Translations under genes and position numbers: made by a program
Virus record (IMG/VR): IMGVR_UViG_3300007734_000514
Coordinates: 1-25,672 of that record
Reading direction: 5' to 3' (one strand)
From: a virus
DNA length: 25,672 nt
The notes under the pieces: model-generated
The model's database searches: none
Told to the model about the DNA's origin: nothing
What the model saw: the letters and a program-made list of their open reading frames with translations, nothing else
Part shown: one piece after another, positions 515 through 25,615 of the stretch
How positions within the stretch are numbered: the stretch's first letter is position 1
How the letters are laid out: every line of letters begins with the position of its first letter

Positions 515-759
515 GCGACCGCCTTTTCAATCTGGCTGACGTAATCCTCAAACGCCTTTGCCTGCTCAGGCAACAGGATCGTCGGCACCGCGTCCTCAAG
601 TTCCTTGATCTTTTCAATCGTGAACATAATCTCGTCCCACGACGGTTTCGGTCGCGGGTCTTCCCAACGGGTGATTTCGCGGTTGCTGATTTCCCATTTT
701 GCACCGGGACGCAGCAAGTGCATCGCCGTATCAATGCCCATTAGTTGATAAGTTTTCAT
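511..759 (-). CDS. Small tail-assembly-chaperone-like protein (82 aa)
   Basis: A small acidic protein with a central segment RWEDPRPKPSWDEI (about residues 31-44) followed by a predicted helix rich in Glu, Ile and Leu. A Trp-x-Asp-x-Arg-Pro-x-Pro-(S/T)-Trp signature followed by a helix is common in small phage proteins encoded directly after tail fibres, often annotated as tail-fibre assembly chaperones. Its ATG overlaps the TGA of the glycine-rich adhesin gene (ATGA) and its own TGA overlaps the GTG of the oxygenase gene. The position right after the adhesin supports a role in folding or attaching that adhesin, but this is inference. A different-frame ORF over the same DNA (471-734) is not supported. 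Confidence 0.68.
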   Translation of the reverse strand: MKTYQLMGIDTAMHLLRPGAKWEISNREITRWEDPRPKPSWDEIMFTIEKIKELEDAVPTILLPEQAKAFEDYVSQIEKAVA

Positions 760-3137
760 GTGAAGTTGACCTTGAGAATTACGATACCGGAACCGCCTGC
801 TGCGCCGTTGGTTAATGCGGAGTTTCCACCGCCACCGCCACCACCGCCGCCGGTATTTGCACTTCCTGCGGTGCCATTACCATTTTGCGAACCTGCACCG
901 CCGCCTCCTGTGCCACCCGCGCCGCCACCGCCACTTAAATAATTTCCACCACCACCGCCGCCGGCATAGGTGACAGAACTGCCGGAAATAGATGATGCGG
1001 TTCCATTTCCTCCCGCGCCGCCACTAGCACTAGAGTTTCCATTTGCTCCGGTTGCTCCTGCGCCGCCGCCACCGCCTGCCGAATAATTGCCGCTCCATGA
1101 GCCTGCTACGCCACCACTATTGCCCTGCGACGGCGATACGCTTGGCGCATTACCCGCCCCAGCAACACCTGTGTATGATGCTCCACCGCCAGAGCCTCCA
1201 GCGCCGCCATCTCCATTGGATACGCCGGCTGTGCCGCCGCCGCCCCCTCCGGTTGAAGTAATGGTGCTAAATACGGAGTTATTACCTGTAGAGCCAGCTC
1301 CCGTTGATGCATTTGATGATGCACCTGCTGCACCAACGGTGATCGTGTACTCAGTTCCTGCGGTAATAGCCAATGCTGTGCCAGTACGCATACCACCAGC
1401 ACCGCCGCCTCCGCCTACATTTCCGCCACCACCGCCGCCTCCGGCCACAACGAGGTAGTCAACGCTGACCGCACCAGCCGGTGCAGTCCACTTCTGCGAT
1501 GACTTGAAGGTGAAGATCGTGGCAGAGCCGATGTTGTATTTGAGGATGACGATGCCGGAGCCGCCGGTATTTCCAGCAGAGTAGTTAGAACCGCCTCCGC
1601 CAGACCCACCGCCGGTGTTGGCCGTTCCTGCCGTGCCAGCAACACTTGCTCCGCCGCCTGCGCCGCCGCCTCCAGTACCACCCGTTGATCCTGTGCTGCC
1701 GCCGCCGCCGCCGCCGCCAGCATAAGTAACGCTACCGCCAGAAATGGACGATGCGGTGCCATTTCCTCCATTACCGCCTGTGTTAACGGAGCCATTTGAA
1801 CCAGCTGACGTAGCACCGCCGCCGCCGCCACCGGCAATGCCAACACCATTCAATTCGCCTGCGCCACCATTTGACCCCTGCGACGGACTAACTGACGGCG
1901 TATTACCAGTTCCCGCTGCTCCGCTTATTCCTTGCCCACCGCCCCCAGAGCCTCCGTTTCCACCAGATGCGCCACCGGGAACTGATCCACCCCCAAGCCC
2001 ACCACCTGTGCTGGTGATGGTGCTAAATACGGAATCACTCCCTTTGCCGCCAGATGCAGAACCGGGATTGCCTCCCGGCCCTGCGGAACCACCGCCGCCG
2101 ATAGTAACGGTGTAATCGGTTCCAGCCGTAACTGATAACCCTGTTCCAGTTCTAAAACCACCGCCACCACCACCGCCGCCAACGGTTCCACCACCACCGC
2201 CGCCACCCGCCACCACAAGGTACTCAACCTCGGTGACGCCAGTCGGTGCAGTCCATGTGCCGCTAGAGGTAAACGTGGCTACGACGCTCTGTACGGGTAC
2301 GCTGTACTTGAGGATGACGATGCCAGAGCCGCCGGAACCGCCGTTTGCATTTTGGCCTGCGCCATAGTCATTGCCTGCACCGCCGCCACCGCCTCCGGTA
2401 TTTGCAGAACCTGCCGTTCCTGCTTGTGTCCCCGACTGGTAACCACCAGCACCGCCGCCACCAGCGCCACCGCTTCCTGCTGGGCCGGGGGCGCGAGAAG
2501 CGCCGCCACCACCGCCTGCATAGGTTACGGACGAACCAGAAATAGACGAGGCTGTGCCAGCGCCGCCGTTTCCTGCCGTTCCGCCCGGAGTGGTTACGTT
2601 TCCTCCCGCAGCACTAGCCCCGCCGCCACCACCACCGCCATATCGCGGATCAACCGCAATGGTGCCGGGGTTTGAACCTCCGGCGCTGCCTTGCGATGGA
2701 CTAACAGAGGGCGTATTTCCAGACCCGCCCGATCCAGCGCCTACTCCACCTGCGCCGCCACCAGAGCCGCCATTGCCGCCGGCAGTTGAATCTTTACCGC
2801 CGTAGCCGCCGCCGGTGCTAGTGATAGTGCTGAATATGGAATCGTTGCCTGCTGATCCGTTGGTGTTATTGACTCCACCAGAACCGCCTGCACCTACTGT
2901 AACGGTATAATTAGTGCCCGCTGTTACGGACAATCCCGTGCCGGTTCTAAATCCACCGGCACCGCCGCCACCCGCGTCGTCAGCGCCACCCCCGCCGCCT
3001 CCGGCGACGACAAGGTATTCCACCTGCGTCACGCCCGTGGGCGCAGTCCAGTTACCGGATGCGGTGAAGATTTTGTATTCGGTGTATGCCGCTGCGCTGA
3101 CCACTTGGCCGAGCAGCAGACTCATAATGCCGCTCAT
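756..3137 (-). CDS. Glycine-rich triple-domain tail adhesin
   Basis: A 793-residue protein made almost wholly of three tandem domains, at residues 24-277, 289-533 and 542-789. Each opens with a beta segment (F-T-x-S-x-x-W-T-A-P, then VEYLVVAGGGGGG or a variant) and closes with GGSGIVILK. Inside each are the same landmarks in the same order: FSTITSTGGG, a (N/A)PSVSPSQG element, TASSISG(S/G)SVTYAGGGGG and long Gly/Ala/Ser/Asn runs. Similar glycine-rich domains occur in tail fibres and surface structures of many environmental phages. The glycine tracts resemble those of the phage S16 gp38 adhesin, where polyglycine-II helices pack into a sandwich; equivalence is inference. A hydrophobic N-terminus (SLLLGQVVSAAA) may be the attachment segment. 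It is the last large tail gene, where receptor-binding proteins often sit. Start choice: first ATG, 3 bp after the previous TAA; only a weak ribosome site. Confidence 0.85.
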   Translation of the reverse strand: MSGIMSLLLGQVVSAAAYTEYKIFTASGNWTAPTGVTQVEYLVVAGGGGGGADDAGGGGAGGFRTGTGLSVTAGTNYTVTVGAGGSGGVNNTNGSAGNDSIFSTITSTGGGYGGKDSTAGGNGGSGGGAGGVGAGSGGSGNTPSVSPSQGSAGGSNPGTIAVDPRYGGGGGGGASAAGGNVTTPGGTAGNGGAGTASSISGSSVTYAGGGGGASRAPGPAGSGGAGGGGAGGYQSGTQAGTAGSANTGGGGGGAGNDYGAGQNANGGSGGSGIVILKYSVPVQSVVATFTSSGTWTAPTGVTEVEYLVVAGGGGGGGTVGGGGGGGGFRTGTGLSVTAGTDYTVTIGGGGSAGPGGNPGSASGGKGSDSVFSTITSTGGGLGGGSVPGGASGGNGGSGGGGQGISGAAGTGNTPSVSPSQGSNGGAGELNGVGIAGGGGGGATSAGSNGSVNTGGNGGNGTASSISGGSVTYAGGGGGGGSTGSTGGTGGGGAGGGASVAGTAGTANTGGGSGGGGSNYSAGNTGGSGIVILKYNIGSATIFTFKSSQKWTAPAGAVSVDYLVVAGGGGGGGNVGGGGGAGGMRTGTALAITAGTEYTITVGAAGASSNASTGAGSTGNNSVFSTITSTGGGGGGTAGVSNGDGGAGGSGGGASYTGVAGAGNAPSVSPSQGNSGGVAGSWSGNYSAGGGGGAGATGANGNSSASGGAGGNGTASSISGSSVTYAGGGGGGNYLSGGGGAGGTGGGGAGSQNGNGTAGSANTGGGGGGGGGNSALTNGAAGGSGIVILKVNFT
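771..3068 (-). repeat. Three tandem ~740-760 bp glycine-rich domain repeats
   Basis: Three in-frame copies inside the adhesin gene, at about 2307-3068, 1539-2273 and 771-1514, separated by short linkers. The copies share landmark segments but differ in length and in the glycine-rich filler, so they are diverged duplications and not recent perfect repeats. On the plus strand they read as runs of cca/ccg/cct, which produces proline-rich shadow ORFs. Confidence 0.85.
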
Positions 3138-4024: not shown

Positions 4025-6022
4025 TCAAGAGATAAACCAAGCGAAGGCATTACTGCCGCCACCGCCACCGCCGCCAGATTGGGCGACCCATGACAAGGTG
4101 CCTGCGCCGTTGGTTTGCAAAACATAGCCATTTACTCCGTCCGCTGTGGGCAGAGTATACGTTGTTGATCCCGCCGCGCTACCCGCCGCAAGTCCGACAT
4201 AACCCGACACCGCACCCAACAATCGCATCGCCGCCATATTGGCCGAGCCGATAGACGCCTGCGTGCTAGTCAGCGTCGTAACCGTGCCGGTCGTTATTAG
4301 CGCCACAGCGGCGTTAATAGAGGCTACCGAGGCTTGCGTTGCCGTGAGGTTTGTCACCACCGCCGTGCCTGCATTGGCCGATGCGATGGAGGCACCCGTA
4401 GCCGTCAAAGTCGTGATTACTGCCACCCCGACGTTGGCCGAGGCCACAGATACCGCGTTAAGGTCTAGGCGGTTGGTGTTGAGCGTGCCGACGTTAGCCG
4501 ATGCGATAGATGCGCCGGTCGCCGTCAAAGCCGTAATTGCTGCCGTACCGACGTTAGCCGAGGCGATGCTGGCTGCCGTAGAGGTCAGGTTAGTGATCGT
4601 TCCCGTCGTGACGAGGGCAACCGCTGCGTTAGCCGAGGCCACCGACGCGCTGGTTGCCGTCAAATTGGTGACGATAGCCGTACCAAGGTTGGCCGAGGTA
4701 ACCGATGCGCCTGTGGCTCGCAGGTCGGTGACATTGGCTACCCCGACATTTGCGGAGGCAACCGATACGCCTGTCAGCGTCAGCGCGGTGATATTGGCCG
4801 TCCCGAGGTTAGCCGAGGCAATGCTGGCTCCCGTTGCGGTCAGGCCCGTAATTACTGCCGTGCCGACGTTCGCAGAGGCCACGGACGCGCCCGTGGCAGT
4901 CAGCGTTGTCACAACCCCTGTGCCGATGTTGGCCGAGGCAACCGATGCCCCTGTAGCCGTTAGCGTTGTTGCAACAAGGTTGCCCGCGTTGGCCGAGGCT
5001 ACGGATGCCCCGGTTGCGGTCAATGTGGTAATGGCTGCGGTGCCGACGTTGGCGCTAGTAACCGACGCCCCTGCCGCACGCAGATCGGTGACGTTGGCAA
5101 TACCAAAGTTAGCCGAGGCAATGGAAACACCCGACAGCGACAAGTTGCCGATGTTGGCTGACGCAATAGACGCGCCGGTGGCCTGTAGGTTTGTAACTGT
5201 GGCCGTCGTGAAAAGCGCGACCGCCGCGTTAATAGACGCGACCGATGCACCCGTGGCGGTAAGGTTGGTGACAACCGCCGTTCCGACGTTTGCGGAAGCA
5301 ATAGAGGCTTGCGTAGCGGTCAGGGTCGTAATGACGCCGACCGTTGCGTTGGCTGAAGCGGCAGATACCGCGCCGAGGTCAGTTTTGCCGGTTACCGTGA
5401 GCGTGCCGCCGACCGACAACGCCGAGGTGATGGATACGTTGGCCTGAAAGCCTGCGTTACCCGTGACCGTCAGCGTGCCGTTGATCGTCGTGTTGCCGAA
5501 CGAGTTGGCGGCGTTAACCATCTGGAAGCGTGTGCCGTCGTACACCACGACCACGATCTCGCCAGAGTTGATGTCACCCGCCGCAAGGGCTGACGCACCG
5601 TCACGGGTCACCGCCTTGGCACCCAGCCCGTCAATGTTGAGCGTCACAGGGCCGGTGTTGGCCCCTGCCGCCACAAAGTAAAACATCTGGCCCGCTGCAT
5701 AAGCCGTCAGAACGGGCGACATCGTGCCGGTGATCGTATCCACGCCGCTCGGCGTGATGAGCTTGACCGCCGTGGACTGCACTTGCGAGAGGTTTGCGGC
5801 GTCTGTCGCCAACGTGCCGACCGCAAGGCCCGTGATCTTGTTGCCGCCCATCGGAATGTTGGCCGTGGGCGTAGTCTGGCCGTCTTTGGTGATACAGGTC
5901 GTCAGACCCGTGGCAAGGTCAGCCGTTAAAGCGTTAAAAACCGTGGCCGAAATGACGGTGTTGGCAACGACAGGCTGCCCTGCCGAGTTGATGAGGAATG
6001 TACCCGAACCGTTAAACGACAT
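4025..6022 (-). CDS. Long tail fibre with 20-residue repeat shaft
   Basis: A 665-residue fibre. The N-terminus (about 1-90) carries GGNKITGLAVGTLATDAANL, typical of phage fibre or collar-binding regions; residues 90-175 form a further beta domain. Residues about 221-595 are a low-complexity shaft of units like TNLTATGASVASANVGTAVV, repeating every 20 residues. The C-terminus has TYTLPTADGVNGYVLQTNG, a common phage fibre-end motif, then a polyglycine stretch and SNAFAWFIS. The start is firm: an AGGAGG site lies 7 nt before the ATG and overlaps the previous stop. Shaft plus terminal domain suggests a trimeric host-binding fibre, as is usual for the class. The regular 5-residue spacing rule in the shaft is described in the findings. 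Confidence 0.88.
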   Translation of the reverse strand: MSFNGSGTFLINSAGQPVVANTVISATVFNALTADLATGLTTCITKDGQTTPTANIPMGGNKITGLAVGTLATDAANLSQVQSTAVKLITPSGVDTITGTMSPVLTAYAAGQMFYFVAAGANTGPVTLNIDGLGAKAVTRDGASALAAGDINSGEIVVVVYDGTRFQMVNAANSFGNTTINGTLTVTGNAGFQANVSITSALSVGGTLTVTGKTDLGAVSAASANATVGVITTLTATQASIASANVGTAVVTNLTATGASVASINAAVALFTTATVTNLQATGASIASANIGNLSLSGVSIASANFGIANVTDLRAAGASVTSANVGTAAITTLTATGASVASANAGNLVATTLTATGASVASANIGTGVVTTLTATGASVASANVGTAVITGLTATGASIASANLGTANITALTLTGVSVASANVGVANVTDLRATGASVTSANLGTAIVTNLTATSASVASANAAVALVTTGTITNLTSTAASIASANVGTAAITALTATGASIASANVGTLNTNRLDLNAVSVASANVGVAVITTLTATGASIASANAGTAVVTNLTATQASVASINAAVALITTGTVTTLTSTQASIGSANMAAMRLLGAVSGYVGLAAGSAAGSTTYTLPTADGVNGYVLQTNGAGTLSWVAQSGGGGGGGSNAFAWFIS
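4238..5362 (-). repeat. 60-bp in-frame repeat array in the tail-fibre shaft
   Basis: The array encodes residues 221-595 of the fibre. The Ser-(Ala/Ile)-Asn landmark recurs 19 times, with Asn at residues 225, 245, 265, 290, 305, then every 20 to 465, 490, then every 20 to 570, and 595. Spacings are 20 residues fourteen times, 25 three times and 15 once. The DNA copies differ at many third codon positions, so selection has acted on the protein pattern and the array is not a recent expansion. Confidence 0.9.
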
Positions 6023-9537: not shown

Positions 9538-11961
9538 TTATGGGCCTCCAAATAAGCCTTTGCCGATAGCGCCGCCGAGCGGGCCGCCGAGTGCCGTACC
9601 TGCTGCGCCAGCAAGGCTACCAAGTAACCCCATGCCCGCGTTATAAGAGCCTACTTGGTTCTGGTAATTGCGCTGTGCAAAGTCGCCTGCCGCCTGACCC
9701 GCTTGGAATATCGGCGCGGGGGCGACGCTGACGCCTTGGTAGCCTTGGAATTGCGGTACAGCCACCTGACCGCCAGAAAGCAACGCGCTGATCTCGTTGA
9801 CCGGCAGCGAGCGGATCGCGGCTTGTTGAGCAAGTGCCTGCTGCACAGCCGTGTTGTAAAACTGCTGCTGCGCAAGGTTTTGCTGGAACTGTTGCTGCGT
9901 GGCTTGGTTGTTCGCAGCAATACGCGCCTGCTGCTCTGCAAACCGTTGCGCAATAGCGGCGTTTCTTGCCTCTTGCTGCTGCACAATCTGCTGGAACATT
10001 TGGCCTTGTGTGGCGTTCTGCGCCTGCTGACGCGCCAACTCCTGCTGCATGGCCTGCGCCTGCGCTTGGTTGTAAAACTGCGCCTGTTCGCGGGACTGAC
10101 CGGCCTGCTGGGCCTGTCGGGCAAGGTTAAGTTCTTGAGCAGCCTGCTGTTGCGCAAAGTTCTGCGCAATGGCTTGGTTATACATCTGCTGCTGCTGCGC
10201 GCCTTGACCAAAAATCTGCTGTAACGCAGCGTTTTGGGCTTCGGTGGCAGACAACCCTTGCTGGAAGTTTTGTGCAACGGCTCGGTTGTACGCTTCGTTC
10301 GCTTGTTGGCCCATGCCAAACTGCGCAAGAAGCCCGGCGCGGTTAAATTCCTGTGCGCCCAAAGCCTGACCAAAACCCTGACCCAATGCGGCGTTTTGCG
10401 CCTGTTGCGCGGCTAACGCCTGCTGGAAGTTTTGGCCAACGGCTTGGTTTTGCGCTTCCTGCGCGGCCTGTGCCTGTGCAAAGTTTTGTGCGATAGCGCG
10501 GTTTTGCGCCTCTTGCGCCTGTTGACCCGTCTGGAACGAGGCCAACTGCGCCTCACGGCCAAACTCACCGGCCTGCAGCCGCTGCTGGAACGCCTGCTGC
10601 TGCGCCTGATTCTGCGCGGCCTGCGTGGCGAGGGCTTGCTGCACGTTCTGGCCGAGGCCGACGTTGTACAGCCCCGCCTGTTCCATGCCCGCCCCAAAAC
10701 CCTGCAACTGCGCCTGATTGGCAAACATGGCGCGGGCCTGCTGTTCAGCAAACCCCTGCTGGCGAGCGGCTTGGTCAAGGCTGATGCCCTGCGCGGCGGC
10801 TTGCAGTAGCAGATCGTTTTCTTTCTGCATCTGCGCCGACATCGCGGCGTTAAAGGCTTCACCGCCCGGGCGTAAGCCTTGGTTAATGAGCTGCGTGTAA
10901 AGCGCCTGACGTTCGCCCTGCAACTGCGGGGTAAGGCGCGACATGATGGCCTGCTGCGCCGTTGTGCCTGCCTGCACGGGGGCAGCCGCAAGCTGCGATA
11001 CGTCTATCTGCCCCTGAAGCTGCGGCCCGCCTACAAACTGTTGGGCGTAGCCAAACTGCCCTTGTGCGGGCGCTGCTTGCGGGCCGCCAAGGCCCGTAAC
11101 GTCAAGTCCCTGCAAGTTAATGCCCTGCGGGCCACCGCCTGCAAGGCCAAACATTCCATAGCTCGGGCCGCCGCCTGCCATGCCGAACGCTTGCCCCGAC
11201 GGAGCAGCCTGCGGCGCAAACGGGCCAGCATCTGCACGACCTAAATCGGTTGGTGCAGCAGGGCCAGCGACAGCGCGTTCTATGCCCGTTGTGTATGGCA
11301 GGATCGCGCCTTGCACGGGCAAATTAACGGACGCCTGCTGGCCTGCCCCCATTTGTCCCGGCAAACCTTCGGTGTAATACGACCCAGCGGGCGTGTAAGC
11401 CGCCGTAGGCGCGTTCATTAACCCCTGATTGGCATACCCAATGTCGGTGTAGCCCGGGGTTTCCTGCAACATTGTGTAGCGTTCAATGCCGCCCGCGTAG
11501 GGCAGGTCGTACCGCAACCCGGGCAAACTGCGTGCATCAAACGCCGATGCAATCCCAAGGTTTTGCAACCCGCCTGCGGCACCGGCGGCAGCCTGCGACA
11601 TTCGCAGCTGCGCAAGTTCCTGCTGACGCAACGCCTGTTCGGCTTCCGCGCTAACCGTTTGCCGTACTGTCGGCTGCTCAATGTAGCTGGTAAATTGCTC
11701 TTGAGTCGGTTCTGGGCCGCCGTAATCAGGCCCATACTGTGCTTGTCGGTCGTAGTACGCCTGCAACGCTTTCTGGTATGCGTCGGTATCTACCTGCGGG
11801 GTCTTTGTCCAAGTGACCGTCTGGCTGCCTTGTGGGGTGTATATGTTCGGATTGGACATATACGCCGACTGCTTGGCAGCGGCCAAATTGGCTTCACCCT
11901 GCTTAATCGCAAGGGTTGCGTAATCAGGTGCCGGTGGCGGTGCCGGTGATTTTTTGCCCAT
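9538..11961 (-). CDS. Large Gln/Ala-repeat ejection (internal virion) protein
   Basis: An 807-residue protein. Residues 1-60 (MGKKSPAPPPAPDYATLAI onward, then NPNIYTPQGSQTVTW) resemble the N-terminus of a family found in many podovirus-like phages after the tail nozzle. Residues 150-330 are Gly/Pro/Gln-rich. Residues 340-394 include TQLINQGLRPGGEAFNAAMS, another landmark of that family. Residues 395-718 are 18 gap-free 18-residue repeats rich in Gln, Ala and Asn, predicted to be one long helix. The C-terminus (775-807) is a Gly-zipper-like hydrophobic segment (GLLGSLAGAAGTALGGPLGG) that could enter a membrane. Head-ejected proteins with helical bodies and membrane-active ends are known from P22 and T7; assignment here is by context. 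A GGAG site precedes the ATG, and the gene overlaps the GNAT gene by 38 nt. Confidence 0.78.
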   Translation of the reverse strand: MGKKSPAPPPAPDYATLAIKQGEANLAAAKQSAYMSNPNIYTPQGSQTVTWTKTPQVDTDAYQKALQAYYDRQAQYGPDYGGPEPTQEQFTSYIEQPTVRQTVSAEAEQALRQQELAQLRMSQAAAGAAGGLQNLGIASAFDARSLPGLRYDLPYAGGIERYTMLQETPGYTDIGYANQGLMNAPTAAYTPAGSYYTEGLPGQMGAGQQASVNLPVQGAILPYTTGIERAVAGPAAPTDLGRADAGPFAPQAAPSGQAFGMAGGGPSYGMFGLAGGGPQGINLQGLDVTGLGGPQAAPAQGQFGYAQQFVGGPQLQGQIDVSQLAAAPVQAGTTAQQAIMSRLTPQLQGERQALYTQLINQGLRPGGEAFNAAMSAQMQKENDLLLQAAAQGISLDQAARQQGFAEQQARAMFANQAQLQGFGAGMEQAGLYNVGLGQNVQQALATQAAQNQAQQQAFQQRLQAGEFGREAQLASFQTGQQAQEAQNRAIAQNFAQAQAAQEAQNQAVGQNFQQALAAQQAQNAALGQGFGQALGAQEFNRAGLLAQFGMGQQANEAYNRAVAQNFQQGLSATEAQNAALQQIFGQGAQQQQMYNQAIAQNFAQQQAAQELNLARQAQQAGQSREQAQFYNQAQAQAMQQELARQQAQNATQGQMFQQIVQQQEARNAAIAQRFAEQQARIAANNQATQQQFQQNLAQQQFYNTAVQQALAQQAAIRSLPVNEISALLSGGQVAVPQFQGYQGVSVAPAPIFQAGQAAGDFAQRNYQNQVGSYNAGMGLLGSLAGAAGTALGGPLGGAIGKGLFGGP
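9808..10779 (-). repeat. 54-bp (18-residue) in-frame repeat array, 18 copies
   Basis: Residues 395-718 of the ejection protein divide into 18 consecutive 18-residue units without a gap, such as AQNRAIAQNFAQAQAAQE and AQNQAVGQNFQQALAAQQ. Position 3 is Asn in 14 of 18 units and position 10 is Phe in 14 of 18, with Val, Ala, Met or Leu in the others. The DNA copies are diverged. The array creates several long antisense ORFs that are artefacts. Confidence 0.9.
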
Positions 11962-12367
11962 ACCGAGGCTCCAAGAAACGACACTTGTCGGGTGTCTGCG
12001 TCATCAAAACAATATCTCCAGAGTCATGCGCGGCGTCCTTTATCCGCGCTTCTTCCGAAAATCCCATCTTGCTGACCAATGCGAGCGCCCGGGTATGGTT
12101 GCTGCTTATTGGCCCTATGATCTTATCAACATTTGCGACGTTGTACGCATAGTCATACACCGCCGCCATATACGCTGGGGTCACCCGCTGCCACGCAATG
12201 TGGCAAACCACGGATTTCCCGTTCCAGTTTTCGTATACCGTCCCGGCGACCAACGCGCCGTCACGCTCCAATCCGATAGCGACCGACCGCTCAGGGTCAA
12301 ACGCCCCTTCGGTCTGCGCCGTAACCCATGCCCCCACTTGAGGGCCGCTGACTATATTCCAGCCCAT
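11924..12367 (-). CDS. GNAT-type acetyltransferase fold protein (147 aa)
   Basis: The protein has the shape of a GNAT domain: a beta strand pair around SVAIGLERDGALVAGTVYEN, a helix VTPAYMAAVYDYAY, and the C-terminal half SSNHTRALALVSKMGFSEEA (residues 88-107), where Asn then Ala-x-x-x-x-Lys-x-Gly-Phe is the usual end of the acetyl-CoA fold. The glycine-rich CoA-pyrophosphate loop (Q/RxxGxG/A) is not obvious, so it may be structural and not catalytic. It ends in CRFLEPRYGQKI. GNAT-like proteins at this place, between nozzle and ejection genes, are common in podovirus-like phages. I chose MGWNIVSG at 12367, which overlaps the nozzle gene by 16 nt; a longer frame to 12400 overlaps it further. 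Function unknown. Confidence 0.72.
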   Translation of the reverse strand: MGWNIVSGPQVGAWVTAQTEGAFDPERSVAIGLERDGALVAGTVYENWNGKSVVCHIAWQRVTPAYMAAVYDYAYNVANVDKIIGPISSNHTRALALVSKMGFSEEARIKDAAHDSGDIVLMTQTPDKCRFLEPRYGQKITGTATGT

Positions 12368-13929
12368 CCGAGTTGATACACCACATCCGTTGAGGCCCAC
12401 TCCAACGACACGTTTTTACTGCTGCTGTTGAAGATGATGCCGCCGCAATATCCGACGCCGCTCAACCCGACGACCGTGTTATTGGCAATCGTGTTGCTGC
12501 CCCAAATGGCCTGATCCCAAAGTCCCACATCCCATAGGCCGTAGTTGGTCGCCACAAACGAGAGCGCACCGAGGAAGTCATCGGTTTGGAAATCCACGGC
12601 GATGCCGACGCCAATGGTCGGCTGGCCGTTGCTATATGTCGTGGTGCGCCCACGGGTGAAGTATTTGATGACGCCACGGGTGTCAAAGTAGTTAAAAGCC
12701 TGCAATGCCTTGGTGTTGATCGCTTGGTTGTTGTCGTTGTACCCGGCTGACCCCGTTCCCGTTGTCCATGCCTTTGCAACGTAACCGTCGCTGCCGAAAT
12801 AAAGTTCGTTGTTGAGCAACGACCAACAGTTCGCATACCAGCCGGTAAACCGACACCACGCCTTAGTGATGTTGTTCATCACAAACTGCTGTTGCGAGCC
12901 GCTGCCCGTCGGAATGTTGACAATTAGGGCATTGTTGAGCGGGTAATACTGCAACGCCCAACCGTGATTGTCTTTGTAAGTGCGTGCGGCAATCGCAAAC
13001 GCGCCTTGAATCTTGTCCGACAGCGCCACGTTGGGATCAAGCCGTGACGATTGCAACGCCGAGGCAAGCGGCACAAGGCCATCCAGCGTCAGCACAAGCA
13101 AGTCGCCGCCGTACTTCATCAGGCAACGCCGTGAGATCGGCGCACCGACGATCCACACGCCGATCAGCGCCCATGTGGAGGCGCTAGAGGGATCGGTGCC
13201 GCGATAAACGATGACTTCGCCCTTGTCGGTGACAAACACAAGGTTGTCGTCAACGCCGTAGCCTGCGTCAATCGTCCACGTTGCCATTGCAACAAGTTTG
13301 CCGCCCAACTTGGCAACCGAGGACAAATCAAGTGATTGTGCCGCACCGCCCACCGATGCCGTCGGTAGATACCACGCTTTCAACGTGTCCACTTGAATAA
13401 ACCACATCCTGTTCTTGAACAGGGTGGGTTGCATCAGCGAGGTGGTTGTGACCCCTGTGATAGCGGGTGTGGATACGCCGTCAATCGCCGTCCAGTTTGT
13501 GCCGTCATACAGCAGCGGCTTGTTGACGCCATTAGCTGCGTACAAATACCCGCCTGCCGAGGTCGTGATATTGGCGGCTTCCCAGCGGCTATTAGATAAC
13601 CCGCTGACCTTGGCCGCGCCAACTGCCCCTGCCGACGTAACGTCGTAAATATTGCCGCCGACGATGGCAAAAAGCTTATCCGTTGACCCGGCGCTGTACT
13701 CCATCAGGGTTTCTATTTGCCCTGTCATGCCGGTGGCGTGTTTGTCGTAGCCACCGCGCAACGTCACGCTGGAAACGCCGGGGAACAAGTTGTCTAGCGT
13801 TACCGCGTCCGTCGGGGCCATGTTGGCGAGCGCATCGCGGGCGTTCCAGCCGCCCACGGGGGCGGGGAGCGAGGCCACATTGGCCTGCGTGCGCTGAATC
13901 AACCGACTGCGACGAACGGGCGAGGCCAT
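12352..13929 (-). CDS. Tail nozzle / packaged-DNA stabilisation protein (P22 gp10-like)
   Basis: A 525-residue beta-rich protein. The N-terminus (LPAPVGGWNARDALANMAPT, about residues 21-40) followed by DAVTLDNLFPGVSSVTLRGG is the recognisable opening of podovirus tail-nozzle proteins. After it come beta-propeller-like segments with repeated aromatic-Gly patterns (LFAIVGGNIYDVT, GGYLYAANGVNKPLLYDGTN, DNLVFVTDKGEVIVYRGTD). P22 gp10, the equivalent, is 472 residues. Such proteins form a hexameric nozzle under the adaptor and hold DNA in the filled head. The start shares a TAATG overlap with the adaptor gene, and the order adaptor-nozzle fits the assembly order. The family assignment rests on pattern recognition, not on an alignment. 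Confidence 0.78.
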   Translation of the reverse strand: MASPVRRSRLIQRTQANVASLPAPVGGWNARDALANMAPTDAVTLDNLFPGVSSVTLRGGYDKHATGMTGQIETLMEYSAGSTDKLFAIVGGNIYDVTSAGAVGAAKVSGLSNSRWEAANITTSAGGYLYAANGVNKPLLYDGTNWTAIDGVSTPAITGVTTTSLMQPTLFKNRMWFIQVDTLKAWYLPTASVGGAAQSLDLSSVAKLGGKLVAMATWTIDAGYGVDDNLVFVTDKGEVIVYRGTDPSSASTWALIGVWIVGAPISRRCLMKYGGDLLVLTLDGLVPLASALQSSRLDPNVALSDKIQGAFAIAARTYKDNHGWALQYYPLNNALIVNIPTGSGSQQQFVMNNITKAWCRFTGWYANCWSLLNNELYFGSDGYVAKAWTTGTGSAGYNDNNQAINTKALQAFNYFDTRGVIKYFTRGRTTTYSNGQPTIGVGIAVDFQTDDFLGALSFVATNYGLWDVGLWDQAIWGSNTIANNTVVGLSGVGYCGGIIFNSSSKNVSLEWASTDVVYQLGWAGI

Positions 13930-19575: not shown

Positions 19576-19902
19576 GGTGAAGTTCAACTCTTGGCGTAGC
19601 TGTCGGATTACCCGATCAGCCTGCTCGTTCGTCATGCGCTGGTTCACTTCCCACTTCAAACGCTCAAGGCGGCTGTTATCCACCTTGGGTTTTGGCAAGT
19701 GCCGTGCGGGATCGTCGTTGCCTACCTCAATGCAGTCGTTTGCCTTGAGGTGCCGACGGTGTTGTGAGCGCGAGGTAATCATGCTGCCGTCAATCATGCT
19801 CTTGTAGGGCTGAATGTCCGGCTGGACGTAGTGATAGCGGCCCTGCGCGTCCTTTTTGCGCTCTACAAACTCGCCATCCATGTAAACGTAAGTGCGTTTC
19901 AT
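19555..19902 (-). CDS. Conserved small head protein after the portal (115 aa)
   Basis: A basic protein with a beta start (RTYVYMDGEFVERKKDAQGR), then MIDGSMITSRSQHRRHLKAN followed by DCIEVGND. The Ser-Arg-Ser-x-His-Arg-x-x-Leu-Lys and Glu-Val-Gly-Asn pattern recurs in small proteins next to portal genes of podovirus-like phages. The C-terminal half (WEVNQRMTNEQADRVIRQLR) is helical. Function is unknown. ATGA overlap with the portal gene and only 2 bp to the scaffold gene place it firmly in the head operon. A head-assembly or portal-associated role is inferred from position only. Confidence 0.7.
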   Translation of the reverse strand: MKRTYVYMDGEFVERKKDAQGRYHYVQPDIQPYKSMIDGSMITSRSQHRRHLKANDCIEVGNDDPARHLPKPKVDNSRLERLKWEVNQRMTNEQADRVIRQLRQELNFTNPHRRG

Positions 19903-21920
19903 TGCTCAAATGACGGCGTGGGCATGGTCTTGCCCATCTGCGCGATGATGAGTTTGGTCTGGGCGTCCACATCAGCCTTGTATTTGGCTGCGGCCTGCTG
20001 ACTTTGCAGTTCCATCGCTTTTAGTTGCGCCTCAAACTGCTGTTTCTGCTGCTCCATCGCCATCTTGGCCTGCGTGCGCACCTGCTCCATCTGGAATTCA
20101 TGCTGCAACTTGGCCTGCGTGAGCGCCGATTCCATTTGCATTTTGGAGGCTTCCATCTGCCCCTTCTGCTGCAACTCGGCCTGTTTGCCCTGCTGCTCGC
20201 CGTCGGGCTGCTGCTGCATGGCGGCCTGCTGCAACTGCTGCAACGTGGCGTCAATCTGACCCTCAATCGGGCGTGCGGCCTTAAACGCCTGCATCCCAAA
20301 GCGCAGCAACTCCATCATCATCGGCACCATCTGCGGGGAGGCTTGGCCGACGGGCAACGCTTGCGCAAGGAACCCGCCAAACGCCTGCAAAAACTGCATC
20401 CGATCCTGCTTGTTCTGGTTCTCATCCAGCATCACAAGGCTATCGGCGGCAATGTCCACGCGGAAATTGCGCAGCGGCTTGTCGCGCAGCAACTGCATGG
20501 CCTGCGGGATCAACTGTTGATCCGATGGCGTCATCTGCCCTGCGGCAGCGTAGGCAAGGATTGTGTCGGGCTGGAAGTGCAGGCACATGACCTGCGCCTT
20601 GAGCTTGATGATCTCGGAGGCGTAGAGGGCAACGTCCTCCTGCATGGAGCGCAGTCTTAATCCCGCGTACTGGCCTTTGATTTGCTGCGCGGTCGCGGTT
20701 TCGCTGGCGAACGAGGTGCCTCGGATGATGTCCGAGATGCCCGTGATTTCGTAAATCTGGCTCTTGATGTCCTCTCTAGCTCGGTAGCAGTTAAGTAACG
20801 CATTTGCGAGCGTGTCAAGCGGGAGGAGGTCAATGCTTCCTTTAAGGCCGCCCTTTTCGCTGAAAGCCATCCACTTATCAACTGGAATAAGCGCATTGTT
20901 GTCGCCCTCTGTGAGCAAGCGTTGCAGCGCAGGCTGGCTGGCGTCGTACACGCCACGCACACGCAGCGCCTTCACCAACCCGTCAATGCGGTCGGAGAGG
21001 ATGTCCAACTCCATCGCCTGATCTTGGTACAGCACAAAGTCGGGAACGGGTACGAGCGTGTCGCTGGTCGTCGTTGCATAAAGCGGTTTCGGGCAAGGGA
21101 AAAACCCCTCAAGGCCGAGCGGGTCATCGCGCACATCAATCATCTGCGGCATACCCTTGCAGAACCAATAGACCTTCTGCGTCTCCTTGTCCCACAACTC
21201 GCAAATCTTGGCGCGGTTGTAGGTGCGCTTGCTCTCGTTGTAAGCGTTAAGCGGCTCTGGCCCTTGGTCTAGCGGGATGCGGCGTGCCATTTCATCGCCA
21301 AACCGTTCTACGAGCGCCTCACGGGTCATGTAGACCCAGCGCCACACCTGCCCCACTTCTTCCCATGTGCGGGCCTGCGAATGGCCGAAATCGCGCCAAT
21401 GAACGTAATCCACCGGGGCGCATTCGTACTCAATTTGCTCCATCGGCTCGGACATTTCGCCCTGCTCTACGGCAGAGGTGACCGATACGCCGTCATCGTC
21501 AATGCCAATGGGCGAGGTGTGCGGTTCGTAGCGCACCCATGCGCTGCCGCGACCGCCCAAAAACCGATCCTCCACGCTGTATTTCATCGTGGAGCGGAAG
21601 TCAGGGTAATGCTCAATCTCAAAGTCAATCGCACGCTCAAGGAGCTGCGCGGCCACGCGGCCCACCGGGTCGTTGTCACCAAAGCGGCGGCTGATGTCAG
21701 CCTTGGGCAGTTTGGCGTAAACGGCAGGCGTCAGCGTCTGCACGTTTGACCACAGGATGTTGAACTTGGCCGATTCGGTCAGCGTCTGCCCACGGGTATC
21801 GTCACGGTAACGCTTGATGATTTTCTTGGTACGCGCCGTCCATTTGGCAAACTCGTTGTCGTACTGCCCAACGATCTTGAGGTAGCGATCCACCTCGCTG
21901 CTAACAAGCATCGGTTCCAT
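19899..21920 (-). CDS. Portal protein (P22-like)
   Basis: A 673-residue protein downstream of terminase and upstream of scaffold and capsid. The opening (EVDRYLKIVGQYDNEFAKWT, then RTKKIIKRYRDD) and NILWSNVQTLTPAVYAKLPK are the usual start of P22-type portals. Other landmarks are CAPVDYVHWRDFGHSQARTW, then LVPVPDFVLYQDQAMELDIL and ITGISDIIRGTSFASETATA, the last in the clip/stem region. The final ~110 residues are a Gln/Ala/Lys/Met coiled coil (MAMEQQKQQFEAQLKAMELQ), like the barrel helix of P22 gp1. The portal forms the dodecameric ring through which DNA is packaged and ejected. Its start makes TAATG with the previous gene. Confidence 0.9.
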   Translation of the reverse strand: MEPMLVSSEVDRYLKIVGQYDNEFAKWTARTKKIIKRYRDDTRGQTLTESAKFNILWSNVQTLTPAVYAKLPKADISRRFGDNDPVGRVAAQLLERAIDFEIEHYPDFRSTMKYSVEDRFLGGRGSAWVRYEPHTSPIGIDDDGVSVTSAVEQGEMSEPMEQIEYECAPVDYVHWRDFGHSQARTWEEVGQVWRWVYMTREALVERFGDEMARRIPLDQGPEPLNAYNESKRTYNRAKICELWDKETQKVYWFCKGMPQMIDVRDDPLGLEGFFPCPKPLYATTTSDTLVPVPDFVLYQDQAMELDILSDRIDGLVKALRVRGVYDASQPALQRLLTEGDNNALIPVDKWMAFSEKGGLKGSIDLLPLDTLANALLNCYRAREDIKSQIYEITGISDIIRGTSFASETATAQQIKGQYAGLRLRSMQEDVALYASEIIKLKAQVMCLHFQPDTILAYAAAGQMTPSDQQLIPQAMQLLRDKPLRNFRVDIAADSLVMLDENQNKQDRMQFLQAFGGFLAQALPVGQASPQMVPMMMELLRFGMQAFKAARPIEGQIDATLQQLQQAAMQQQPDGEQQGKQAELQQKGQMEASKMQMESALTQAKLQHEFQMEQVRTQAKMAMEQQKQQFEAQLKAMELQSQQAAAKYKADVDAQTKLIIAQMGKTMPTPSFEQ

Positions 21921-22290: not shown

Positions 22291-22589
22291 GCGGTGAAGA
22301 ACCCGACAGCCAACACCGTTACGCCTGCGCCGGTCGTGATCTTCCACGGGCCAGAGGCCGAGGCGGCGTTGATCTCAAGGCTATAGACGCCGACGGGCGT
22401 GTTGGCGGCCATTGTTAGCACCGTGGTGCTGTTATCCAGCACGCTCAACGTGGAAGTACCGGTCGCCGTGACCGTGACCACGATGCGGTGCAAGTAGTCG
22501 CCTACCGCGCCCGACCCGCCCAACACCTGCGCGGTCTGGGAGGCGGCCACAGTCTCGTAAGGGTATCTATTCGGGGACGTAATGCTCAT
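22287..22589 (-). CDS. Small beta-rich protein of unknown function (100 aa)
   Basis: A Thr/Val/Ala-rich all-beta protein (YLHRIVVTVTATGTSTLSVL, then TVLTMAANTPVGVYSLEIN and WKITTGAGVTVLAVGFF). It has the look of a small virion surface or decoration domain. The position between TerL and portal is unusual for such a fold, but ATGA overlaps at both ends support it as a real gene. I do not recognise a named family. Confidence 0.65.
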   Translation of the reverse strand: MSITSPNRYPYETVAASQTAQVLGGSGAVGDYLHRIVVTVTATGTSTLSVLDNSTTVLTMAANTPVGVYSLEINAASASGPWKITTGAGVTVLAVGFFTA

Positions 22590-23926
22590 ATCCGCGCTCT
22601 CCGCGAGGTTGTCCGATCATGCACCGCCCACATATCGTTAAGCGTGACGGTGTTCTGTGGGCCGACCATGAGCGGTTTAGGCTCAAGGGCCGGGGTCTTG
22701 TCAGCAGTCTCCTGCCATGATACCGCAAGCATACGGAAAGCGTCAGCCGGGTGGCTAGTCCAATCGTGACGCGGTGACTGACGATAGGCTTTCTTGTCCT
22801 CGTCGTACTCGCGCTGATACTGACGCAACGCCTCAATGCCATCGCGGCATTTCTCGGCGTCAAACCAAATGCGCGGCAACGTCATGCGCACCGCTTGGAT
22901 GCCTGACTGCACGCCGATGTCGGGAACCACGGCAAGTTTGGCGACATCCAGATGCACCGCCAACTGCTCAATGATGCTCTTGCCAGTTTGCAAGCTCTTG
23001 GCTCTAGCGTCGTGCGGTAAATAGTGGCGAGCGTAACGGTACGGCTTTGCCATCACGGTTGTGGCGATGTCGTAAATGTCGGCACCCGACACCGCGTAAA
23101 AGTCTATGACGCGGATTTCCCCGCGCCCGATCTGGTAGAACCATATTGCCGTATCGTCCCGATACCCCAAGTCCCAACTGCTGTAGACAGGCAGGTTGGG
23201 GTCGTATGGCACTTGGCAGATTCGGCCCTGCTGGTCGGCCTCGCGCATTTCCTTGCCGTAAAAAGCGCCGAGGATGGCAGCCTCAAAACTGCACTCGTAC
23301 TCCTGCAAATACTGATCCTCGGCCAATTGCGCCCGGGCGGCAGACAGTTCGCCGCTAGGGAGTAACCCGCTGCTGGAGGCGGGGAGGCGCAGCAGGAACC
23401 ACTCGCTAGGGAGACGAGTGGCCGTTTCGTAAATCTCCCAAAAGGCGTTCTTACCCTTGGGCGTACCGCCGAACACCGCCCAGCCTTGTTTATCCGAAAG
23501 GGCAGGGCGTATGACGTTGCCGAACACGCTGGGTTTGAAGTCGCCGTATTCGTCCATGTACACGCCAGAGAACCCGAGGCCACGCATGGCATCCGCGTTG
23601 TCAGCACCGTAGAGGCGTATCTGGCTGCCGTTTATCAGCGTGATCGTCAATTCTTGTTCGTTTTTGGACTGCGTGACGCTTTGCGCAAACTCTTGAAAGT
23701 ATTGCCATGCAACTGCCTTGGCCTGACTACGGTAGGGGGCGATGTAGGCAAACAGCCCCCGATCCCCTTGGTAGGTGATGGCGGCTCGGATGATGTCGTT
23801 GACGGCGGCGACGGTTTTGCCTGCGCGACGATGCGCGACAAGGCAGGCCCAGCGTTGCGTCCTGTCGTGAAACGGCATGAACGCTTTGCGTGGGCGGTAG
23901 GGGATGATTACTCGGGAGCCATCCAA
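22586..23926 (-). CDS. terL: Terminase large subunit
   Basis: A 446-residue packaging motor. The ATPase half has Walker A AHRRAGKT (residues 31-38), Walker B GVYMDEYG (121-128, with D125 and catalytic E126) and the coupling motif GGTPKGKN (153-160). The nuclease half shows SSWDLGYRDDTA (249-260, acidic D252 and D257/D258), YLPHDAR (302-308, D306) and HPADAFRM (392-399, D395), the expected RNase H-like metal ligands. It cuts concatemeric DNA and drives it through the portal. I keep the first ATG: the stretch IPYRPRKAFMPFHDRTQRWA before Walker A is a standard part of this family, so a start at residue 17 would truncate it. It overlaps the small-terminase-like gene by 19 nt. Confidence 0.93.
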   Translation of the reverse strand: MDGSRVIIPYRPRKAFMPFHDRTQRWACLVAHRRAGKTVAAVNDIIRAAITYQGDRGLFAYIAPYRSQAKAVAWQYFQEFAQSVTQSKNEQELTITLINGSQIRLYGADNADAMRGLGFSGVYMDEYGDFKPSVFGNVIRPALSDKQGWAVFGGTPKGKNAFWEIYETATRLPSEWFLLRLPASSSGLLPSGELSAARAQLAEDQYLQEYECSFEAAILGAFYGKEMREADQQGRICQVPYDPNLPVYSSWDLGYRDDTAIWFYQIGRGEIRVIDFYAVSGADIYDIATTVMAKPYRYARHYLPHDARAKSLQTGKSIIEQLAVHLDVAKLAVVPDIGVQSGIQAVRMTLPRIWFDAEKCRDGIEALRQYQREYDEDKKAYRQSPRHDWTSHPADAFRMLAVSWQETADKTPALEPKPLMVGPQNTVTLNDMWAVHDRTTSRRARI

Positions 23927-24162
23927 CTCACTTGCACCTTGATCTTGTCGCCGTTCTGCCCGGTCAACTCATGCCGGGCAAGTTTCGGCACATGGTACTC
24001 AATGACATCCATCATGCAGCGCCATGCGGCTTCTGCGCCTTTCGTCTCATAGATTTCATCTAACCAAATGTTAAGGCGATGGGCATTGCCGTCTACCAAA
24101 CGGGCTATTGCTTCCCGAGCCTCTGCGGTTGCCTTGTTGGGCGATCCTTTAGGTCTTGGCAT
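23908..24162 (-). CDS. Probable terminase small subunit (84 aa)
   Basis: A short helical protein opening with RPKGSPNKATAEAREAIARL (residues 3-22), a basic Pro-Lys-Gly-x-x-Asn-Lys start that is common in small proteins directly upstream of phage terL and is consistent with DNA binding. A helical middle (LNIWLDEIYETKGAEAAWRC) and a beta end (IKVQVSWMAPE) follow. It overlaps terL by 19 nt, the usual terS-terL arrangement. Most small terminases are longer than 84 residues, so this may be a compact form or a different packaging accessory. It is the first gene after the AT-rich gap. Confidence 0.6.
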   Translation of the reverse strand: MPRPKGSPNKATAEAREAIARLVDGNAHRLNIWLDEIYETKGAEAAWRCMMDVIEYHVPKLARHELTGQNGDKIKVQVSWMAPE

Positions 24163-24205: not shown

Positions 24206-25615
24206 TTATTTGGACTTCTTGGGGTCACGGTACATGGACTCGCTGATGGCGTAATTCTTATTTCGGCCTTTGTTTTCTACGAACCCAAACCGTTTGTAAA
24301 AGTCTTTTAAGCGCCCAACCGAACTTGCGCCGTATTCGGTTGAAGGCGACAGCACCACGCGCTTACCTTCGGCATCGGCTTTATCAATAATCTCTTGCAT
24401 GGCCTGTGATCCAAGTCCTTGCCCTTGTTGGTCTTTAGGTACGGCGATTTTGGATAAATACAGAGTGTTTGGATCGCTGCGAAGCGGGTAAATGTCCACC
24501 TCAACCTGTGCGCTGGTCGGTGCGGCGCGTTGGAGCATATCCGCAACCTTTTTGCCGTCTCGCTCCAATATGCGTACTTTCTTTTCCTCGCCGGGGAATA
24601 CGACAAAGTTGCGAGTGCCGGTGCCGCCTTGGCCTCGGCTGCCTGCGTCTTGATACTTTACTCCCAGAACGCCTTGGCTTTGCAAGAACTTGGCTACTTT
24701 TGGTTTTTCTCCGCCTTTTGAAGAGCCATAGCCTTCATAAATCCAACCATGAGCGGTTTCACCTGTTGGGTTTGCAAACATTTTGTCAATTTCTGCTTGC
24801 GTATTCCCCCTAGCAAGCAATTGTTTTTTTAGTTTTTGCGCTTCTTTTGTTTGCTGCCATGATTGCCATGCCGCCCTAACAGATTCAGGCTGGTCGCTTA
24901 TTCTCTTGTCCCAATCCAGCATACGATCAATCATTTCGTCGGGGAGGTCGGCTTTGTAAAGTGCGCCAGCCGCTTTTTCGTTGATTTTACCGATACGGTT
25001 CACTAACGCTTTCTGATTTGGGTATTGCTCACGCAATTCGCTTGCCGTGCGGTGCAACATTGCCGCTTCTAGCACTTCCATTGCGTCGTAGTTTTGACGC
25101 GCTTCGGCTTGCTTGTACAAATTCATCAGTTTGGCTTCGGCTTTCGGGTCACGCGGCTGATACCCTTTTGCTACTTCGGGGTTTTCTGCGTAGTAAATCC
25201 CATGCCCGTAAGCCTGCGCGCCTTCGCCCGTGCCGATCTTACTTGCATCAAACTCGCCTAACGGGTTGGCTTCCGTGGCAGGGAATCGGTGCGGCGTGCC
25301 GTGGTAAACATCCAGCTCTAACCGTGTCGGGTCAAAGCCCTTCAGCAGTTTGGCAAGCTTACCGCCCGGTATCGCCCCTGCCGCTGCCATAGCCATGCCT
25401 GCGGGGTCGTTAGCGCGTCTGGCGCGTTCTACGTCACGGGCGGCAAGTGCCTGCCCTACGCCGGGGACAAAGCTCGCACCCGTCTCCACGGCAATATCGG
25501 CTAGGTCTTGCTCCTGCGGGTCAAGGCTCACCATCCGTTCGGCGCGGCGGCGCAAATCGGCCTTGTCGCCCAGATAGCGCAATGCAGCCGCTACGTTTTC
25601 GCGCCGCATTGGCAT
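24206..25615 (-). CDS. ADP-ribosyltransferase-like and GNAT fusion protein (469 aa)
   Basis: Two enzyme-like domains in one chain. Residues 101-160 and 285-350 carry the landmarks of the ART fold found in phage polyvalent proteins (ART-PolyVal type): VYHGTPHRF (103-111, H105), FDASKIGTG (122-130), AYGHGIYYAE (135-144, Y141/Y142), then GVLGVKYQDAGSRG and NFVVFPGE (336-343). They are split by a helical insert (about 160-285). Residues 370-469 look like a GNAT acetyltransferase: YLSKIAVPKD, the acetyl-CoA loop QGQGLG (397-402), and GRLKDFYKRFGFVENKG (434-450). The N-terminal ~95 residues are helical and Ala/Arg-rich. ART enzymes transfer ADP-ribose from NAD to proteins; GNATs acetylate from acetyl-CoA. 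Targets are unknown. The ATG abuts the previous TAA. Confidence 0.8.
   Translation of the reverse strand: MPMRRENVAAALRYLGDKADLRRRAERMVSLDPQEQDLADIAVETGASFVPGVGQALAARDVERARRANDPAGMAMAAAGAIPGGKLAKLLKGFDPTRLELDVYHGTPHRFPATEANPLGEFDASKIGTGEGAQAYGHGIYYAENPEVAKGYQPRDPKAEAKLMNLYKQAEARQNYDAMEVLEAAMLHRTASELREQYPNQKALVNRIGKINEKAAGALYKADLPDEMIDRMLDWDKRISDQPESVRAAWQSWQQTKEAQKLKKQLLARGNTQAEIDKMFANPTGETAHGWIYEGYGSSKGGEKPKVAKFLQSQGVLGVKYQDAGSRGQGGTGTRNFVVFPGEEKKVRILERDGKKVADMLQRAAPTSAQVEVDIYPLRSDPNTLYLSKIAVPKDQQGQGLGSQAMQEIIDKADAEGKRVVLSPSTEYGASSVGRLKDFYKRFGFVENKGRNKNYAISESMYRDPKKSK

What the first reader, a model, noticed from the sequence alone, without database searches (positions are those of the whole stretch)
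24206..25615. ART-like domain and GNAT acetyltransferase fused in one phage protein next to the packaging genes
The chain carries an H-Y type ADP-ribosyltransferase pattern (H105 in VYHGTPH, Y141/Y142 in GHGIYYAE, E343 in NFVVFPGE) and a complete-looking GNAT CoA loop (QGQGLG). Phage ARTs such as T4 Alt and ModA modify host proteins early in infection, and polyvalent phage proteins deliver effector domains with the DNA. Two protein-modifying activities in one product could mean sequential modification of a host target, or one domain controlling or protecting against the other. Its position just before the packaging and virion genes makes virion packaging conceivable.
Basis: partly seen in the sequence, partly recalled or inferred. 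Interest (0 to 1): 0.7.

Follow-up and report, generated by a model that had tools for sequence, protein, structure and literature searches.

The report
Swappable phage effector beside packaging genes
A bacterial virus carries, next to its DNA-packaging genes, a protein that joins two predicted protein-modifying enzymes; the pairing was already described in 2017, but related viruses keep exchanging the enzyme part, and two helical pieces inside one enzyme, while the rest hardly changes, which suggests a delivery slot for weapons against the host cell.

Summary
The ORF (minus strand, 24206-25615, 469 aa) contains an ART-fold domain (residues about 99-352; separate model pLDDT 91.8; matches the cyanophage A4 pre-ejectosome, diphtheria toxin and PARPs) and a minimal GNAT (about 370-469; above Pfam cut-offs; model pLDDT above 90). 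H105 is conserved in 121/124 relatives and Y141 in 124/124. Y142 is not conserved, and E343 is probably not the catalytic residue: invariant N336 occupies the strand-5 position. The T4 Alt/ModA comparison is the wrong ART clade (R-S-E). ART+GNAT in one polypeptide near virion genes was described by Iyer et al. 2017, so the fusion is a new member of the polyvalent proteins. Beyond the papers I could read: (1) this position beside small terminase is a replacement hot spot in Mx8-like podovirus relatives, where leaders starting with an 'RxxxAAALxY' helix carry interchangeable C-terminal modules (ART, GNAT, ART+GNAT, zeta-toxin-like, LPD23+HExxH and others); (2) within the ART, two helical inserts reassort as unrelated cassettes while the core is frozen (pN/pS about 0.07). 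ART and GNAT also occur separately, which speaks against obligatory two-step chemistry. Best reading: a probably virion-delivered modular effector; delivery, activity and targets are inferred.

The parts
24206..25615 (-). whole gene, 469 aa: leader + ART + minimal GNAT
   Evidence: ORF; relatives with the same start; purifying selection in ART blocks and GNAT
25325..25615 (-). constant leader, residues 1-97, helical, no Pfam match; carried by proteins with unrelated C-terminal modules
   Evidence: no Pfam family at E<=10 in this part
25571..25606 (-). N-terminal motif RRENVAAALRYL (residues 4-15), shared by otherwise different leaders
   Evidence: in 41 of 50 unique slot proteins (43 by eye) versus 0 of 142 other ORFs of the same loci (pattern chosen after inspection)
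25172..25321 (-). ART core block 1, residues 99-148: strand 1 with H105 (25301-25303), strand 2 with Y141 (25193-25195)
   Evidence: conservation, pN/pS 0.065, model
24959..25183 (-). cassette A, residues 145-219: helical insert between ART strands 2 and 3, reassorting (approximate limits)
24905..24958 (-). ART middle block, residues 220-237 (YKADLPDEMIDRMLDWDK), includes strand 3
24674..24904 (-). cassette B, residues 238-314: second helical insert, between strands 3 and 4, reassorting
24560..24673 (-). ART end block, residues 315-352: strands 4-6 with invariant N336 (24608-24610) and E343 (24587-24589)
24209..24508 (-). minimal GNAT acetyltransferase, residues 370-469
   Evidence: Pfam; model pLDDT >90 in this part; best structural match AcrVA5; alignment of 40 relatives
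24410..24427 (-). acetyl-CoA loop QGQGLG, residues 397-402
   Evidence: both glycines (G400, G402) invariant in the 40-sequence alignment A6
23908..24162 (-). small terminase gene (by position and homology within the group), 43 nt downstream
   Evidence: PHROG hit without function
22586..23926 (-). large terminase, anchor used for the slot survey
   Evidence: phrog_2
19899..21920 (-). portal protein, related to that of Myxococcus phage Mx8
17505..18524 (-). major capsid protein
   Evidence: phrog_9953

Best explanation
The gene is one allele of an exchangeable effector slot beside the terminase genes of short-tailed, Mx8-like phages. The N-terminal leader (helical, beginning RxxxAAALxY) most likely directs the protein into the head during assembly, so that it enters the next host with the DNA (inferred). 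There the H-Y-type ART would transfer ADP-ribose from NAD+ to a host macromolecule, with its two helical inserts shaping target choice, and the separate minimal GNAT would acetylate the same or another host protein, most plausibly to blunt defence or redirect host functions (inferred). Shown here: ART fold, conserved H105/Y141/N336, intact GNAT fold and CoA loop, purifying selection on both domains, constant leader with swapped C-terminal modules, DNA-level mosaic with reassorting inserts. Not shown: packaging, catalysis, targets.
For: ART fold and catalytic positions. GNAT. Position 5' of TerS in many contigs, or between TerL and portal; TerL-anchored survey that does not presuppose ART. Module exchange at near-constant flanks: L186/L187/L188 keep 90-97% DNA identity in TerS-TerL-portal while the slot gene is mostly replaced. 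Alternative modules: LPD23 + HExxH, zeta toxin, GNAT alone. Motif shared by different leaders. The best-matching solved structure of the ART model is part of a virion pre-ejectosome protein (9k3a). Literature predicts virion packaging for such proteins. Purifying selection.
Against: No virion proteomics could be consulted (the phiGT1 table is in a supplement that was out of reach). N336 sits where diphtheria toxin and PARP1 have the catalytic glutamate, so activity or chemistry may differ. The leader has no known family and modelled poorly (pLDDT about 40-70). Genes next to TerS may simply be late genes. The motif test was post hoc.
Confidence: 0.5

Rival explanations
1. The effector is made late and acts inside the producing cell (host control, protection of packaging from defences, exclusion of rival phages) and is never packaged.
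For: It lies in the packaging operon and would be expressed late; the survey of viral ARTs itself offers the alternative that such ARTs counter immunity against portal or terminase.
Against: A constant leader carrying unrelated modules looks like a sorting device; ART-like domain in a virion pre-ejectosome protein.
Confidence: 0.22
2. The ART part is a pseudoenzyme or structural ejection domain that binds but does not transfer, and only the GNAT is catalytic.
For: N336 replaces the catalytic glutamate position in 122/123 relatives (register inferred); the best structural match is a structural virion protein (9k3a).
Against: H105, Y141 and their neighbourhood are under very strong purifying selection; H-Y-x ARTs without the glutamate are known to work as mono-ARTs (own knowledge, e.g. 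PARP10); the insert cassettes vary as expected of a targeting surface.
Confidence: 0.15
3. A toxin of the phage-borne polymorphic type used against competing bacteria or against other phages, as proposed for MuF toxins.
For: Constant N-terminus with exchangeable C-terminal modules, including a zeta-toxin-like one; HYD2-type ARTs are shared with polymorphic toxins.
Against: No MuF domain; the next gene is TerS 43 nt downstream, so no dedicated immunity gene follows; no leader homologue was found in the genomes of 84,980 bacterial and archaeal species, which speaks against common prophages.
Confidence: 0.08
4. One reading: ART and GNAT act in sequence on one target, or one domain controls the other.
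For: They are fused in at least six related contigs (window, L002, L054, L060, L257, L268), and adjacency recurs in polyvalent proteins.
Against: Most relatives have the ART alone; the GNAT occurs with the leader but without ART (L264, L265-L267) and in giant proteins with other neighbours.
Confidence: 0.05

Closest known systems
Polyvalent proteins of phages (Iyer et al. 2017, PMC5512222), in particular ART + RimI-like GNAT
   Same: ART and this GNAT family in one polypeptide, encoded near virion genes; uncultured phage protein BAR32501.1 is a named example with this GNAT, and the phiGT1_5 record cites BAR32501 as its closest phage homologue
   Different: Short (469 aa), built as constant leader plus swapped C-terminus; the paper says polyvalent proteins do not follow that toxin-like layout
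ART-PolyVal (PF18760), Tox-ART-HYD2 clade
   Same: H in strand 1, Y in strand 2, ART fold; sequence hits at sub-threshold score, L050 above threshold
   Different: Two long helical inserts; invariant N at the strand-5 position, acidic residue only after the strand
Cyanophage A4 pre-ejectosome protein (PDB 9k3a chain B, residues 1420-1599)
   Same: Best structural match of the ART model (Z 9.8, 151 aligned, 3.7 A, 15% identity); resides inside a virion
   Different: Part of a very large internal protein; function of that domain not checked here (paper not held)
AcrVA5, anti-CRISPR acetyltransferase (PDB 6iuf)
   Same: Minimal GNAT of about 90 residues; best structural match of the GNAT part (Z 10.3, 88 of 95 aligned)
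   Different: Sequence relation not significant (profile E 0.21); target unknown; generic GNATs score nearly as high
MuF polymorphic toxins of phages (PMC5576092)
   Same: Constant N-terminus, variable C-terminal module, next to terminase/portal genes
   Different: No MuF domain, no immunity ORF downstream, no trace in sequenced host genomes for this leader
T4 Alt / ModA
   Same: Phage ARTs; Alt is injected with DNA
   Different: R-S-E active site, different ART clade

Membership tests
ART superfamily, H-Y clade | ART fold | tested here: met
   model pLDDT 91.8; VIA Z 8.2 diphtheria toxin, about 7 PARPs, 6.8 cholix; Foldseek against PDB alone gave E no better than 0.2, BFVD ART-PolyVal proteins 1e-16
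ART superfamily, H-Y clade | H in strand 1 and Y in strand 2 | tested here: met
   H105 121/124, Y141 124/124; both lie in the modelled strands 3-9 and 42-45
ART superfamily, H-Y clade (H-Y-[EDQ]) | acidic or Q residue in strand 5 | tested here: inconclusive
   strand-5 position is N336 (122/123); E343 (E/D in 104 of 123) lies after the strand; register inferred from aligned end points only
ART-PolyVal PF18760 | Pfam gathering score | tested here: not met
   21.6 bits versus cut-off 31.2; relative L050 scores 33.1
T4 Alt/ModA (R-S-E clade) | R-S-E active site | tested here: not met
   H105/Y141 at the first two positions in nearly all relatives; Alt clade defined as R-S-E
GNAT acetyltransferases | Pfam score and Q/R-x-x-G-x-G/A loop | tested here: met
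   PF13508 32.9 (27), PF00583 31.0 (20.7); loop glycines invariant; fold
AcrVA5 | sequence homology beyond the general GNAT fold | tested here: not met
   profile E-value 0.21, weaker than many ordinary GNATs
Polyvalent proteins | unrelated enzymatic domains in one phage polypeptide near virion genes | tested here: met
Polyvalent proteins | packaged and injected | not testable with these tools
   no proteomics at hand; supplement look-ups not available
MuF polymorphic toxins | MuF domain at N-terminus | tested here: not met
   no Pfam family in residues 1-97 at E<=10
MuF polymorphic toxins | small immunity ORF directly downstream | tested here: not met
   TerS follows 43 nt downstream

The most novel reading that the evidence does not exclude
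The ART is a retargetable enzyme: a frozen catalytic core with two all-helical, freely reassorting cassettes that act like the target-recognition domains of type I restriction HsdS, mounted on a MuF-independent leader that loads interchangeable effectors into podovirus heads from a recombination slot beside TerS.
Probability: 0.3. Interest if true: 0.7.

Novelty: new variant of a known kind. Interest (0 to 1): 0.45.

Why it matters
The ART-GNAT pair alone adds a member to the polyvalent proteins. The slot matters more: it gives a natural library of short effectors on common leaders, with near-identical phage backgrounds, so delivery (leader) and target choice (cassettes) can be tested separately. 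If the leader proves to be a head-loading tag it would be a compact delivery signal unrelated to MuF, and the cassettes would show how ARTs change targets in an arms race.

Tried and rejected
T4 Alt/ModA kinship: wrong active-site clade. AcrVA5 homology: structural match only; profile E 0.21. The first full-length model gave a poor ART because ART-only rows were misaligned onto the GNAT (seen); replaced by an ART-only model. Profile search of the ART against PDB sequences returned only gp41 and nucleoporin constructs with coiled-coil composition, taken as spurious. Leader in bacterial genomes: no relative, so no host assignment. Relatives of the genome could not be drawn for a virus record. 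Immunity-gene idea: nothing between the window gene and TerS; in L020/L201 the 280-nt gap holds an open minus-strand frame, not followed further. phiGT1 virion proteomics: main text does not name gp5 and the supplement could not be opened. Cyanophage A4 paper not held. Blast clustering of whole slot C-termini merged ART with other modules because leaders differ in length, so module types are given by domain evidence instead. The motif regex was written after seeing the leaders, so 41/50 versus 0/142 is descriptive.

Full report
What is there. The ORF is on the minus strand, 24206-25615, 469 aa; its ATG directly follows the stop of the preceding gene, whose 3' end is the last part of the contig. 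Downstream, in order, lie TerS, TerL, portal, a gene in scaffold position and the capsid gene. The window is a 25.7-kb virus record; its portal resembles that of Bradyrhizobium phage ppBjS10J-1 and Myxococcus phage Mx8 (36-39% identity).

Domains. Residues 376-447 match GNAT families above the Pfam cut-offs; residues 101-193 match ART-PolyVal below its cut-off. An ART-only AlphaFold model (residues 99-350, 85 aligned relatives) has mean pLDDT 91.8 and pTM 0.82. Structure comparison puts first the cyanophage A4 pre-ejectosome protein (9k3a chain B, Z 9.8, 151 residues, 3.7 A), then diphtheria toxin (Z 8.2), PARP13, PARP10 and tankyrases (about 7), cholix (6.8) and ParT (6.4). Plain Foldseek against the PDB gave ART toxins on top with weak E-values (best 0.22), and against viral models ART-PolyVal proteins at 1e-16. 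Matches around Z 7-8 are modest in themselves; that nearly all listed rows are ARTs, with the right residues at the right strands, is what convinces. The GNAT part of the full-length model has pLDDT above 90 and is closest to AcrVA5, a 95-residue minimal GNAT (Z 10.3), but sequence does not tie it to AcrVA5 (E 0.21).

Catalytic residues. In 124 relatives, H105 is His in 121, Y141 is Tyr in 124, N336 is Asn in 122 of 123 and Y152 is Tyr in all; Y142 is mostly F or L; E343 is E in 73 and D in 31. The structural alignments run from model residue 1 to 252 against diphtheria toxin 15-162 and tankyrase-2 1025-1150. Counting from the ends places H105 on toxin His21 and tankyrase His1031, and N336 on toxin Glu148 (inference, assuming no gap near the ends; the residue roles in those proteins are own knowledge). 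Iyer et al. give H-Y-D for this clade; whether their D is the residue aligned with E343 could not be settled.

Selection. Between the window and L002 the first ART block shows pN 0.010 and pS 0.71; the mean pN/pS over 37 pairs is 0.065. Middle and end blocks give 0.034 and 0.068; the GNAT gives 0.23 over three pairs, 0.12 for the closest. Both domains are therefore maintained.

Modularity of the slot. Searching viral contigs with the protein found relatives with the same leader and ART but no GNAT (L003-L009), the same leader with quite different C-termini (L016-L024), and other leaders with ART and GNAT (L002, L054, L060). A second search anchored on TerL, which presupposes nothing about the slot, showed the gene 5' of TerS to be ART, ART+GNAT, ART with a weak ParB-like hit, LPD23 with an HExxH motif, a zeta-toxin-like kinase (PF06414, 50.6 bits), and several unassigned modules, or a ParB-methyltransferase where no TerS was detected. 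Genomes that keep 90-97% DNA identity across TerS, TerL and portal, with detectable identity again just before the slot gene, have it largely replaced (L186, L187, L188). Of 50 unique complete slot proteins 41 (43 by eye) start with an RxxxAAALxY-like motif; none of 142 other ORFs from the same loci do. L066 carries two such proteins, one 5' of TerS and one between TerL and portal.

Mosaic inside the ART. At DNA level the window and L005 share 92.6% over nt 1-458, nothing detectable in cassette A, 88% over 74 nt, nothing in cassette B, and 96.7% over the last 90 nt of the ART. Smith-Waterman scores of non-matching cassettes are at the level of shuffled sequence, apart from a small stretch in L007. 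Among 42 unique ARTs there are 29 cassette-A, 25 cassette-B and 11 leader clusters, freely combined: A1 occurs with five B types and B1 with eight A types. BLAST clustering of short sequences cannot exclude remote homology between cassette types. In the model both cassettes are helical bundles between strands 2-3 and 3-4. A role in target choice is inference by analogy with HsdS specificity subunits.

Independence of ART and GNAT. ART proteins usually end 18 residues after N336. The GNAT occurs after the leader without ART in L264, and with another module in L265-L267, and in giant DarB-like or PLxRFG proteins of Serratia, Klebsiella and Vibrio phages. The two are separate modules that recur together.

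Comparison with what is known. Iyer et al. 2017 describe this ART clade, this GNAT family and their adjacency, and predict injection with DNA. A 2022 survey adds that phage ARTs are often encoded beside terminase, portal and capsid genes and are likely head-packaged. Hence the finding as stated is a new member of a known kind. The constant leader with swapped C-termini resembles MuF polymorphic toxins but has no MuF domain and no immunity gene; the reassorting ART cassettes I did not find described in the library, which lacks most subscription papers.

Verdict. Observation confirmed; interpretation partly supported; the slot and the cassettes make it a new variant. Packaging, activity and targets remain untested.

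Noticed in passing
L210:2124-3335, L211, L215, L236, L247, L248: In some close relatives the slot holds a ParB-like plus N6/N4 DNA methyltransferase (PF01555, 80 bits) and no homologue of the window's TerS was detected next to TerL.
   Followed up: partly
L020:2763-3044 and L201:4063-4342: In loci with the 'SMSDRTAAGGVLRGIND' module, a conserved open frame on the opposite strand lies between the effector gene and TerS; it could be a small partner protein.
   Followed up: no
L026:3583-8052 (Tunturiibacter phage Tunturi_5 gp273): Polyvalent protein that by eye contains a Nudix domain, three ART-like segments and more than one GNAT, with an ART followed by a GNAT as in the window.
   Followed up: partly
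window 4025-6022, minus strand: 665-aa protein made of many 'TATGASVASANVGTAVVTNL'-like repeats of about 20 residues, probably a fibrous tail protein.
   Followed up: no
window 756-3137, minus strand: 793-aa glycine-rich protein with three long repeats ('TAPTGVTEVEYLVVAGGGGGGG'), probably a tail fibre part.
   Followed up: no
window 11924-12400, minus strand: 158-aa protein with weak GNAT hits (E 0.03), a possible second acetyltransferase among the tail genes.
   Followed up: no
L066:1265-2083: Leader-bearing 272-aa protein 5' of TerS with another ART-like C-terminus (YHAS...SYAVFDKK), in a contig that also has the main ART between TerL and portal.
   Followed up: partly
L039:21-1622: Second, different ART-like domain (TIYRGVPKDAGDGINVGDWVTL) fused after the main ART.
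   Followed up: no
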